Part shown: positions 57,061 through 58,890 of the stretch, piece after piece
Layout of the letters: each line of letters opens with the position of its first letter
Position numbering within the stretch: the first letter of the stretch is position 1
DNA from: Phaeobacter sp. HF9A
GTDB lineage: Bacteria > Pseudomonadota > Alphaproteobacteria > Rhodobacterales > Rhodobacteraceae
Assembly (NCBI RefSeq): GCF_011806385.1
Contig: NZ_JAATOX010000011.1
Span: 1 to 58,890 of the forward strand
Reading direction: 5' to 3'
DNA length: 58,890 nt
Made by a program: the position numbers and the translations under genes
Notes under the pieces: model-generated
Databases searched by the model: none
Told to the model about the DNA's origin: nothing
What the model saw: only the letters and a program-made list of their open reading frames with translations

Positions 57061-57615
57061 ATGGAAGGTTTTACAATAATCGACGGCGCGGTGGCGCTGG
57101 TCATCGTCATATCGGCGCTGTTGGCCTATGCGCGCGGCTTCGTGCGCGAGGTGATGGCGATCATCGGCTGGATCGCTGCCGGTGTGCTGGCGTTCATCTT
57201 TGCCCCTCAGGCGGAACCGCTGATGGCGGAGATCCCGGTGGTGGGCGATTTCATTTCGGACAGCTGCGAGCTGTCGATGATCGCGGCCTTCTTTGCGGTC
57301 TTTGCGGTGGCGCTGATCGTGGTGTCCTTCTTCACGCCGCTGCTGGCGGGGCTGGTGCAGCGTTCCGCGCTCGGCGGGCTTGACCAGGGCGCCGGGTTCT
57401 TCTTTGGCGTGCTCCGCGGCATCCTCCTCGTGGTGATCGGCTTCTTTGTCTATAATGTCGTCATGACCGGGCAAAGCTTCACCATGGTGGACGAGAGCCG
57501 CTCGGCGGCGGTGTTCAACCGGGTGATCGGCAAGGTCGAGGAACAGAACCCCGAGCAGGCGCTTGGTTGGGTGACACAGAAATACGAGGATCTGATTTCC
57601 AGCTGCGCTGGCTGA
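57061..57615 (+). CDS. cvpA: CvpA family membrane protein
   Basis: 184 residues with four predicted membrane helices (about 5-25, 32-50, 68-88, 104-125) and a C-terminal soluble helix. The start MEGFTIIDGAVALVIVISAL and the GGLDQGAGFFFGVLRG loop are CvpA-family marks. The family is linked to colicin V production and envelope stress resistance; the exact role is unknown. In relatives purF usually follows; here a terminator does. Confidence 0.92.
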   Translation: MEGFTIIDGAVALVIVISALLAYARGFVREVMAIIGWIAAGVLAFIFAPQAEPLMAEIPVVGDFISDSCELSMIAAFFAVFAVALIVVSFFTPLLAGLVQRSALGGLDQGAGFFFGVLRGILLVVIGFFVYNVVMTGQSFTMVDESRSAAVFNRVIGKVEEQNPEQALGWVTQKYEDLISSCAG

Positions 57616-57637: not shown

Positions 57638-57671
57638 AGGGGGCGCCTTATTGGGCGCCCTTTTCTGTTTT
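57638..57671 (+). terminator. Rho-independent terminator of radA-cvpA
   Basis: GGGCGCC-TTATT-GGCGCCC stem followed by TTTTCTGTTTT. Starts about 22 nt after the cvpA stop. Confidence 0.9.
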
Positions 57672-57721
57672 GGCGATGCCGCGCCGCCCTGTTCCGGGAC
57701 ACTGCTGACTCATGCACAGAG

Positions 57722-57730
57722 TTATCCACA
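57722..57730 (+). promoter_or_regulatory. DnaA box
   Basis: Exact match to the consensus TTATCCACA. A second site with one mismatch (TTACCCACA, 57854-57862) directly abuts the second CtrA box. Confidence 0.55.
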
Positions 57731-57765
57731 TGCAGGCAGCAAGGATTAATGCGCAGCCTCACAGA

Positions 57766-57780
57766 TTAACCTTTTGTTAA
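57766..57780. promoter_or_regulatory. CtrA box 1
   Basis: TTAA-CCTTTTG-TTAA, exact TTAA-N7-TTAA. TTAA is rare in this GC-rich DNA. Confidence 0.65.
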
Positions 57781-57838
57781 CCAACAAGAATCACCGGTTA
57801 ACAAAGCGCGCCTCAGAGCAAAAAACCGCCTGATTTCC

Positions 57839-57853
57839 TTAACAAAACCTTAA
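57839..57853. promoter_or_regulatory. CtrA box 2
   Basis: TTAA-CAAAACC-TTAA, exact TTAA-N7-TTAA, about 170 nt before the Hint gene start. Confidence 0.65.
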
Positions 57854-58021
57854 TTACCCACAGCTACGTCATTAACCTTTTAATAAAATCCTTGTTTTTT
57901 GCCGAGAACCCCGAAGTCGTACCGACTCTGTCCCAAGCCTGCCCCATTCTTGTCCCAATTCAGGGGCCAATTGGGATCAACGAAGGCAAAAAGCCTCGCG
58001 CTCTCAGAAGGGACATTGGAC

Positions 58022-58738
58022 ATGCTGCTGGATCACACCACCGCGTTTACAGACTATCAGCCGGTTGACCTGCTTTTGAACCTGTGTGGACAGGATGAAG
58101 TGGTCAAAGACAGCGCGCGTCTGCGTCCCCAACAGGGCGGCGTTCTGCCCGGCACCTTGATCGAGACGGCAGAGGGTTTTACCCAGGCCCGCGCCCTGCG
58201 TCCCGGCGACATGGTGCAGAGCTTTGACGGCGGGCTGCGCGAGGTTGTCGCGATCCGCCAATCGGTGCCGCGTCTGACCGCGATGGTGCATATCCCCGCT
58301 GGCGCGCTTGGCAATGATGCGCCGCTGGAGCTGCCCTCGGATGCCGTGGTTGCCCTGGACGGTGATCTGGCGCTCGACCTTTTTGACCTGCATGTGGTCA
58401 CCGTCAAGCTGGTGGCGCTGATCGGCTACAAGGGCATTCGTACCGCCCTGCCCCAGCGTCTGCCCCGCGTCCATATCGACTGTGGTGAAGAAGAGCTGCT
58501 CTGGGCCGAAGGCGGTCTGCTGATCAATGCCGGCAGCCCCGAAGAGGACGGTTTTTACAGCCTGCTGTCGCTGAGCGAGAGCCGCGTGATTGTTGCCGCT
58601 GATCGTGCAGACCTGGACGCCGAGACCGCAACCGAGACGGAAGAGGCCGAGGCGGATGAGGATTTCTTTGGCCTGAACGCCATGCCCGCGCCGGCCTTTG
58701 ATCCCATTGACCTGCTGTTTGGTCGCTACGCCGCCTGA
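58022..58738 (+). CDS. Hint-domain protein lacking the splicing nucleophile
   Basis: 238 residues. The centre reads LPGTLIETAEGFTQARALRPGDMV (about 42-65, given as a region), matching the block A/B start of the Hedgehog/intein (Hint) fold common in Rhodobacteraceae; in active Hint domains a Cys or Ser stands before the PGT. Here GGVLPGT has no Cys or Ser, and the end of the domain lacks a clear HN-C/S, so autoprocessing is unlikely. An acidic C-terminal tail (ETEEAEADED) follows. Start at ATG 58022 with AAGGGA about 8 nt before; 41 upstream codons are open but not conserved. Controlled by the AT-rich CtrA/DnaA region. Confidence 0.75.
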   Translation: MLLDHTTAFTDYQPVDLLLNLCGQDEVVKDSARLRPQQGGVLPGTLIETAEGFTQARALRPGDMVQSFDGGLREVVAIRQSVPRLTAMVHIPAGALGNDAPLELPSDAVVALDGDLALDLFDLHVVTVKLVALIGYKGIRTALPQRLPRVHIDCGEEELLWAEGGLLINAGSPEEDGFYSLLSLSESRVIVAADRADLDAETATETEEAEADEDFFGLNAMPAPAFDPIDLLFGRYAA

Positions 58739-58789
58739 GCCGCCCCGAACGCGCGCGTCCTCGCCTCGCCAAGGACAGGCGGCGCCCGG

Positions 58790-58890
58790 TCAGATTTGGC
58801 CGAGGTAGTAGCCGATGGCCTCGGCCAATTCCGTTTCCTCATAGCCGAAATGAGAGCGCACGACCTCTTCCAACTTGCGGAACACGGCGG
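58790..58890 (-). CDS. C-terminal end of a probable hemerythrin-like (HHE) protein
   Basis: The last 33 codons of a leftward gene that continues beyond the window: FRKLEEVVRSHF and GYEETELAEAIGYYLGQI before TGA at 58792-58790. The H-x-G-Y-E-E spacing with a preceding Leu-Glu helix fits the final metal-ligand helix of HHE/hemerythrin domains, but the piece is too short for certainty. Confidence 0.5.
   Translation of the reverse strand, partial: AVFRKLEEVVRSHFGYEETELAEAIGYYLGQI

What the first reader, a model, noticed from the sequence alone, without database searches (positions are those of the whole stretch)
57672..58021. AT-rich region combining DnaA boxes, two perfect CtrA boxes and GANTC sites
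Within about 230 bases of markedly AT-rich DNA there is a perfect DnaA box, a one-mismatch DnaA box touching a CtrA box, two exact TTAA-N7-TTAA CtrA sites and three GANTC (CcrM) sites. TTAA is rare in the rest of the window. This combination is the hallmark of cell-cycle-controlled DNA in alphaproteobacteria (as at Caulobacter Cori). The seat between cvpA and a Hint gene is not a known chromosomal origin, so either the Hint gene is under DnaA/CtrA/CcrM control or this is an unrecognised origin-like or DnaA-titrating site.
Basis: partly seen in the sequence, partly recalled or inferred. Interest (0 to 1): 0.72.

Follow-up and report, generated by a model that had tools for sequence, protein, structure and literature searches.

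The report
Conserved cell-cycle promoter of Hint gene
A short AT-rich stretch in a marine bacterium looks like a conserved promoter that would let the cell-cycle regulator CtrA and DNA methylation control an orphan gene of unknown function; it does not look like a replication origin.

Summary
The DnaA box (57722), two exact TTAA-N7-TTAA boxes (57766, 57839) and three GANTC lie between the cvpA terminator and a Hint_2 gene. Box 1 is the full roseobacter CtrA consensus TTAAC-N5-GTTAAC.

In 18 genomes of the genus, box 1 is exact in 14. A GANTC starts exactly 22 bp after it in 13 of those 14, and also in an ortholog from another genus. Box 2 is exact in 9 of 18, all one clade. The first DnaA box is exact in 6 of 18 and within one mismatch in 11. 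The second DnaA box and the outer two GANTC are not conserved.

It is not the chromosomal origin: in a complete relative it lies about 1.15 Mb from the GC-skew minimum, which falls at the maf-hemJ gap.

Best reading: the Hint gene's own promoter, bound by CtrA, probably tuned by CcrM/GcrA, possibly by DnaA. A tandem 11-bp repeat near the gene recurs in degenerate form at many family Hint genes and resembles a ChvI-type box. Nothing was measured. The protein models as a Hint fold without the usual catalytic cysteine; its function is unknown.

The parts
57061..57615 (+). cvpA (Colicin_V family), upstream gene
   Evidence: Pfam PF02674 E=1.4e-28
57638..57663 (+). terminator-like hairpin after cvpA (11 pairs, T-rich tail)
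   Evidence: pattern scan, 1 found, shuffles mean 0.7; a GGCGCC...GGCGCC-type dyad recurs in most rows of the genus alignment (read)
57715..57730 (+). DnaA-box element CACAGAGTTATCCACA, perfect TTATCCACA at 57722-57730
   Evidence: exact 9-mer at this position in 6 of 18 genomes, within 1 mismatch in 11 of 18; 17-mer start 51-53 bp before box 1 start in the 10 of those 11 that have box 1
57766..57781 (.). CtrA box 1, TTAACCTTTTGTTAAC, full TTAAC-N5-GTTAAC consensus
   Evidence: TTAA-N7-TTAA exact in 14 of 18 genomes; stricter TTAAC-N5-GTTAAY at this promoter in 12 of 18, 3 loci in G000; consensus quoted in PMC7232146
57788..57792 (.). conserved GANTC (GAATC), starts 22 bp after box 1 start
   Evidence: 13 of 14 genomes with box 1 plus the G075 ortholog; 0 of 18 other CtrA boxes of G000 have it there
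57839..57853 (.). CtrA box 2, TTAACAAAACCTTAA
   Evidence: exact in 9 of 18 genomes, 9 of 9 of the nearer clade; best-conserved 4-7-4 word of 239 in the spacer
57854..57862 (+). second DnaA-like 9-mer TTACCCACA; probably not a DnaA box
   Evidence: present at this position in 1 of 18; eight sisters read TTACCCCCA or similar
57872..57880 (+). CtrA half-site-like TTAACCTTT about 150 bp before the ATG
   Evidence: a TTAA lies at -140 to -164 in 18 of 18 genomes
57929..57961 (+). three tandem 11-mers TGTCCCAAGCC TGCCCCATTCT TGTCCCAATTC, response-regulator-type direct repeat
   Evidence: TGCCCCATTNNNGNCCCAATTC within 1 mismatch in 18 of 18 genomes, single in 17; phased .G[CTG]C triple in 16 of 18
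58006..58013 (+). Shine-Dalgarno-like AGAAGGGA
   Evidence: sequence; near-invariant in the alignment
58022..58738 (+). Hint_2 gene, 238 aa, the likely controlled gene
   Evidence: PF13403 E=4.8e-11; Hint-superfamily folds as best PDB matches; within 0.6 kb of cvpA in 17 of 18 genus genomes, 3.2 kb away in G149

Best explanation
The stretch is the promoter and control region of the Hint gene, separated from cvpA by a terminator. CtrA~P is predicted to bind box 1 and box 2 (and the TTAA half-site near -150) and so tie the gene to the CckA-ChpT-CtrA relay. The GAATC beside box 1 would be methylated by CcrM and, since it fits the GcrA extended motif YGAKTCK, could make output depend on methylation state, hence on passage of the replication fork. 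DnaA may bind TTATCC[A/C/T]CA upstream as a further, lineage-variable input. A second OmpR-family response regulator, perhaps ChvI, would bind the tandem 11-bp repeats just upstream of the gene. Shown: the sites, their conserved spacing, the presence of ctrA, gcrA, dnaA and a CcrM-like RAMA protein in the genome, and that the locus is not at the skew-defined origin of a relative. Inferred: all binding, the sign of regulation, the start site and the output.
For: Box 1 exact in 14 of 18, box 2 in 9 of 18. In the 9-genome clade box 2 is the single best-conserved 4-7-4 word of 239 and box 1 is in the top 3. Information is 2 bits at every TTAA position across 15 aligned promoters, while most flanks are near 0-1 bit. 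GANTC at +22 in 13 of 14; the next most frequent offset has 5. Box 1 plus GAATC at +22 also occurs upstream of the 46%-identical ortholog in another genus, which precedes purF. The conserved site reads AGAATC[A/G] in 13 of 13 plus G075 (rows), i.e. YGAKTCK on the other strand (motif from PMC7987155). CtrA over cut-off, GcrA, RAMA, DnaA. Of the 18 other exact boxes in G000, one precedes a MotB gene followed by a flagellar rod/hook gene, one precedes a PAS protein that I take for DivL, one a protoglobin-STAS/STAS pair; flagellar genes and divL are reported CtrA-site genes in D. shibae (passages).
Against: No binding, methylation or expression data. 4 of 18 genomes lack exact box 1 (G153, G154, G157, G164) and G157 and G164 lack both boxes. 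The DnaA 9-mer is exact in only 2 of the 8 clade sisters, and 21 of 245 9-mers do as well or better. Most of the 18 other boxes were not matched to known CtrA targets: I scanned 10 proteins at 8 of 18 boxes, and the box at a flagellin gene lies inside its reading frame. No sigma-70-type promoter was found. A 2021 survey suggests methylation is not a major regulator in Rhodobacterales (PMC8116508, passages). The boxes sit 170-260 bp before the ATG, far for direct activation unless the start site is far upstream. The extended GAATC fits YGAKTCK but not the stricter YGAKTCG said to be activated.
Confidence: 0.72

Rival explanations
1. CtrA-only promoter: the GANTC and DnaA elements are incidental or serve another protein, and only the CtrA boxes matter.
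For: CtrA boxes are the best-conserved words; the DnaA box is exact in 6 of 18; methylation was suggested to matter little in this order (PMC8116508).
Against: GANTC at exactly +22 in 13 of 14 and outside the genus, with a diverged 7-bp spacer.
Confidence: 0.3
2. Chromosomal or secondary replication origin.
For: AT-rich, DnaA box, CtrA boxes and GANTC together.
Against: In G155 (complete; dnaA at base 66) skew falls from + to - at about 1.34-1.38 Mb and is minimal near 3.03 Mb; the locus is at 1.879 Mb. At 3.03 Mb lies the only cluster of 3 or more DnaA-like boxes within 400 bp and the most AT-rich 200 bp of the 320 kb scanned, between maf and the UPF0093/hemJ gene. The locus has one semi-conserved DnaA box. 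Limit: measured in a relative, not in the window's fragmented genome.
Confidence: 0.02
3. DnaA-titrating or DnaA-reactivating site (datA/DARS-like).
For: A perfect DnaA box, one of only 17 in the assembly.
Against: A single box, exact in 6 of 18; the neighbour 9-mer is not conserved. datA and DARS carry several boxes (recalled).
Confidence: 0.04
4. The Hint gene is controlled mainly by the OmpR-family repeat near it (ChvI-like, envelope stress); the upstream CtrA module is a minor or lineage-specific add-on.
For: The repeat is conserved in 18 of 18 and degenerate versions occur at other family Hint genes: Gibbs score 360 against 226-236 in 10 shuffled sets, 18 of 29 best sites at -120 to -65; TG[CT]C-N7-[TCG]G[CTG]C in 17 of 29 at -140..-40 against 0 of 29 at -340..-240.
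Against: The last pattern was written after seeing the sequences. A region further upstream also scores above shuffles (273). Exact GCC-N8-GCC is in 11 of 29 (5 of 29 further upstream) and 8 of 18. ChvI identity rests on a quoted consensus and recall.
Confidence: 0.35
5. Chance site cluster in AT-rich spacer DNA.
For: TTAA and GANTC are AT-leaning words; two GANTC and the second DnaA box are indeed not conserved.
Against: Shuffles and conservation with fixed spacing.
Confidence: 0.04

Closest known systems
CtrA-dependent promoters of Rhodobacterales (Dinoroseobacter shibae luxR2, flgE; Rhodobacter sphaeroides fla2)
   Same: TTAA-N7-TTAA / TTAAC-N5-GTTAAC boxes upstream of a gene; D. shibae luxR2 is reported with two perfect sites (passages of PMC4046655; PMC7232146; PMC6180460).
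   Different: Controls an orphan Hint_2 gene; carries a GANTC at fixed spacing to box 1 and a semi-conserved DnaA box.
Caulobacter ctrA P1 (GANTC + CtrA + GcrA control)
   Same: A GANTC is used together with CtrA in one promoter (passages of PMC8116508).
   Different: Different gene, order and geometry; methylation and timing untested here.
Caulobacter Cori
   Same: DnaA boxes, CtrA boxes and GANTC in AT-rich DNA (Cori anatomy recalled).
   Different: Mid-replichore in a relative, one semi-conserved DnaA box, no origin neighbourhood.
ChvI direct-repeat sites
   Same: Tandem repeats one helical turn apart; S. meliloti consensus quoted as N-GCC-N8-GCC (passage of PMC9731502).
   Different: In G000 the three units begin GTC, GCC, GTC rather than GCC; regulator untested. 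R. sphaeroides CenR TGA-N8-TGA (PMC9275681) fits less well.

Membership tests
CtrA-regulated promoter | full CtrA box TTAA-N7-TTAA | tested here: met
   two exact boxes; box 1 exact in 14 of 18
CtrA-regulated promoter | CtrA encoded in the genome | tested here: met
   NF045991 431 bits, cut-off 350, G000:C245
CtrA-regulated promoter | box conserved across species | tested here: met
   absent or altered in 4 of 18
CtrA-regulated promoter | CtrA binding and CtrA-dependent transcription | not testable with these tools
   needs ChIP-seq and mutants
CtrA-regulated promoter | box placed near the -35 region for activation | tested here: inconclusive
   start site unknown; no sigma-70-type hit
CcrM/GcrA-controlled promoter | conserved GANTC in the promoter | tested here: met
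   13 of 14 with box 1, same offset
CcrM/GcrA-controlled promoter | extended GcrA motif YGAKTCK | tested here: met
   AGAATC[AG] in 13 of 13 plus G075 (rows); the stricter YGAKTCG is not matched
CcrM/GcrA-controlled promoter | CcrM and GcrA encoded | tested here: met
   GcrA PF07750; RAMA domain in a 399-residue open frame, methylase domain itself not scanned
CcrM/GcrA-controlled promoter | site methylated and output methylation-dependent | not testable with these tools
   needs long-read methylation data and reporters
chromosomal oriC | lies at the GC-skew minimum | tested here: not met
   about 1.15 Mb away in G155
chromosomal oriC | cluster of conserved DnaA boxes | tested here: not met
   one semi-conserved box
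datA/DARS-like DnaA site | several DnaA boxes | tested here: not met
ChvI-type site | GCC-N8-GCC direct repeat | tested here: inconclusive
   8 of 18 genus and 11 of 29 family promoters exact
active Hint (intein/hedgehog) domain | Hint fold | tested here: met
   PF13403; pLDDT 77.8 model, best PDB matches inteins, BIL and hedgehog
active Hint (intein/hedgehog) domain | N-terminal catalytic Cys/Ser | tested here: not met
   Gly at the expected position; no Cys there in the 34 aligned proteins; position assigned from recall of the intein block-A motif

The most novel reading that the evidence does not exclude
A four-input cell-cycle promoter (CtrA, CcrM/GcrA through a GAATC at fixed 22-bp spacing, DnaA, and an envelope-stress-type OmpR regulator such as ChvI) drives a catalytically dead Hint protein. 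That would be a case of replication-coupled, methylation-sensitive transcription in Rhodobacterales, where such control has been thought minor, and would make these orphan Hint proteins outputs of the cell-cycle/envelope network.
Probability: 0.22. Interest if true: 0.65.

Novelty: new member of a known kind. Interest (0 to 1): 0.42.

Why it matters
A published survey suggests that methylation-state changes play no major role in gene regulation in Rhodobacterales (PMC8116508, passages). A CtrA box with a GANTC held at one exact distance across a genus and beyond it gives a small, clean promoter on which that can be tested directly. It also gives the first regulatory lead that I found for the orphan Hint_2 genes, whose function is unknown, and a candidate DNA box for the regulator they share.

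Tried and rejected
Origin: sampled and then contiguous GC skew in G155 placed the minimum elsewhere. RNA element in the leader: Rfam gave only one sub-threshold match (20.1 bits, gathering 61) and RNAalifold on 13 of the 18 leaders gave -5.07 kcal/mol with 3 of 15 pairs doubly changed; not convincing, and the 11-bp repeats explain the block better. Leader as coding sequence: one-base indels between sisters and a Shine-Dalgarno-like sequence argue against it. MraZ box: both mraZ loci found, no matching TGGG array upstream. CenR box: TGA-N8-TGA does not fit. Box 1 + GANTC at other family Hint genes: exact CtrA boxes in 3 of 29 upstream regions, the +22 GANTC only in L002; those 29 are the best-scoring of 46 other genomes with a hit, since loci were capped at 30. 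Hint genes next to cvpA in G031 and G044 have no CtrA box. Literature on these Hint proteins: no paper held both 'hint domain' and 'Rhodobacterales'; none of the 10 listed of 45 for Hint/CtrA/Roseobacter had 'hint domain'; the PF13403 search was swamped by HINT2 papers (10 of 326 listed), so nothing can be said from it; one search found one paper with Tritonibacter mobilis and CtrA, seen as a listing only. A position weight or phylogenetic model of the footprint was not built.

Full report
What is there. The window is part of a Rhodobacteraceae assembly (G000, contig C11, 4.27 Mb in 262 contigs). The gene order is radA, cvpA, terminator, spacer, Hint_2 gene. In T. mobilis an ORF that I read as purF follows the Hint gene. 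The Hint gene lies within 0.6 kb of cvpA in 17 of 18 genus genomes and 3.2 kb from it in G149.

Observation. Exact TTAA-N7-TTAA occurs 20 times in the assembly and perfect TTATCCACA 17 times, against 7 for the reversed control. C11 is the only contig in both lists. Shuffle tests of the chosen region give p=5e-5 for two CtrA boxes, 0.0015 for the DnaA box, 1e-4 for eight TTAA, and 0.014 (dinucleotide) or 0.07 (mononucleotide) for three GANTC. The region was chosen for its sites, so I rest the case on conservation.

Conservation. In the 18 genomes box 1 is exact in 14: all but G153, G154, G157 and G164. Box 2 is exact in 9, the clade nearest to the window. The DnaA 9-mer at its aligned place is exact in 6 and within one mismatch in 11. 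In the 9-genome clade, box 2 is identical in 8 of 8 sisters, the best of 239 words of that shape; box 1 in 7 of 8, with 3 of 239 words as good; the DnaA 9-mer in 2 of 8, with 21 of 245 9-mers as good or better; the second DnaA-like 9-mer in 0 of 8. A GANTC starts exactly 22 bp after the start of box 1 in 13 of the 14 genomes with box 1; the next most frequent offset has 5. In the exception, G161, a GATTC lies at +28. The DnaA element starts 51-53 bp before box 1 in the 10 of 11 that have both. The GANTC at 57707 and 57924 are not shared. A TTAA about 150 bp before the ATG is found in 18 of 18.

Outside the genus. In 149 family genomes searched (148 besides the window's own) the Hint protein has relatives in 47, the window's own included. 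The only other close one is G075 (46% identity). Its gene lies upstream of an ORF that I read as purF, with no cvpA in the 1.5 kb before it. Its upstream region has TTAACGCTTTATTAA with GAATC at +22 and the leader block, but no DnaA box. Of the 29 fetched family upstream regions, 3 have an exact CtrA box and only G075 has the +22 GANTC. Of the 18 other exact boxes in G000, 3 have any GANTC within 100 bp and none at +22 or its mirror place.

The GANTC. Its context is AGAATC followed by A or G in 13 of 13 genus genomes and in G075 (rows), which on the other strand is YGAKTCK, the extended GcrA motif used in PMC7987155 (section 11 read in full; passages). It does not match YGAKTCG, the form said there to be activated. 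GcrA, a RAMA-domain protein as expected of CcrM (among 14 control genomes only Caulobacter rings), DnaA and CtrA are encoded. The ctrA gene of G000 has four TTAAC half-sites within 110 bp of its ATG.

CtrA motif in this organism. TTAAC-N5-GTTAAC is the motif quoted for D. shibae and R. capsulatus (passage of PMC7232146). TTAAC-N5-GTTAAY occurs at 3 loci in G000, and at the Hint promoter in 12 of 18 genomes. I looked at ORFs round the 18 other exact boxes and scanned 10 proteins at 8 of them: a MotB gene followed by a flagellar rod/hook gene, a PAS protein I take for DivL, and a protoglobin-STAS/STAS pair lie just downstream of boxes; a box near a flagellin gene is inside the frame as called. 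D. shibae flgE, a motor gene and divL are reported with CtrA sites (passages of PMC4046655).

Not an origin. G155 has a 3,200,938-base chromosome with dnaA at base 66; from memory this is the size of the strain TM1040 chromosome, not checked. Twenty 20-kb samples show skew positive to about 1.30 Mb and negative from 1.44 to 2.88 Mb; denser data put the terminus switch near 1.34-1.38 Mb and the minimum near 3.03 Mb. There, between maf and a UPF0093 (hemJ-like) gene (Pfam), lie the only cluster of three DnaA-like boxes within 400 bp in the 320 kb scanned and its most AT-rich 200 bp. Flanking ORFs read as dnaQ, coaE, aroE and rho, mnmE, gidA (names by eye). The Hint promoter is at 1.879 Mb. This is shown for the relative and inferred for G000.

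Second element. Between the CtrA region and the gene lies TGTCCCAAGCC TGCCCCATTCT TGTCCCAATTC. Its core TGCCCCATTNNNGNCCCAATTC is found within one mismatch in 18 of 18 genomes, once in 17 and twice in G155. Other family Hint genes carry degenerate tandem repeats: Gibbs sampling on 29 upstream regions scored 360 against 226-236 for ten shuffled sets; a region further upstream scored 273; 18 of 29 best sites lie at -120 to -65. A pattern written after inspection is in 17 of 29 at -140..-40 and 0 of 29 at -340..-240; exact GCC-N8-GCC is in 11 of 29 against 5 of 29. The shape is that of an OmpR-family site, and S. meliloti ChvI is quoted as N-GCC-N8-GCC (passage of PMC9731502). A response regulator beside a Sensor_TM1 histidine kinase on G000:C46 looks to me like ChvI/ChvG; NCBIfam did not name it.

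The protein. PF13403. An AlphaFold model on 22 aligned relatives (nine of the genus rows cut at the match end) has mean pLDDT 77.8. All 21 PDB matches with E at or below 0.001 are inteins, intein-like or hedgehog domains, best E 3.8e-6. In 34 aligned proteins none has a Cys where the catalytic residue is expected (position recalled), so self-cleavage is unlikely. The function is unknown.

Verdict. A conserved, probably CtrA-bound promoter of an orphan Hint gene with a methylation site locked to the main CtrA box. The parts are known kinds; the combination and the gene are new to me. It bears on the suggestion that methylation matters little for regulation in Rhodobacterales (passages of PMC8116508).

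Noticed in passing
57929-57961; upstream of family Hint genes such as L018, L023, L029: Tandem 11-bp direct repeats, conserved in the genus and degenerate at many family Hint genes, resembling a ChvI-type response-regulator site.
   Followed up: partly
57980-57999 and the same place in sister loci: A short hairpin (AGGC-loop-GCCT) whose stem seems, by eye, to change on both sides in G153/G157 and G163; the consensus fold did not support it clearly.
   Followed up: partly
L117:10533-10815 (G155:C3 about 3.0305-3.0308 Mb): Likely oriC of the genus, between maf and a hemJ-like gene, with TTATCCCCA and TTATCCACT boxes and no exact CtrA box.
   Followed up: partly
L167 (G000:C15:8796): An exact CtrA box lies a few bases before an ORF with nine RTX calcium-binding repeat matches.
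   Followed up: no
58786-58890, minus strand: End of a reading frame (read by eye) with HFGYEE, perhaps hemerythrin-like, cut by the contig end; sister T. mobilis instead has a purF-like ORF after the Hint gene.
   Followed up: no
L002 and the other G075 hits: G075 carries 15 identical-scoring DnaA/IstB-like ATPase hits, suggesting a multi-copy insertion element.
   Followed up: no
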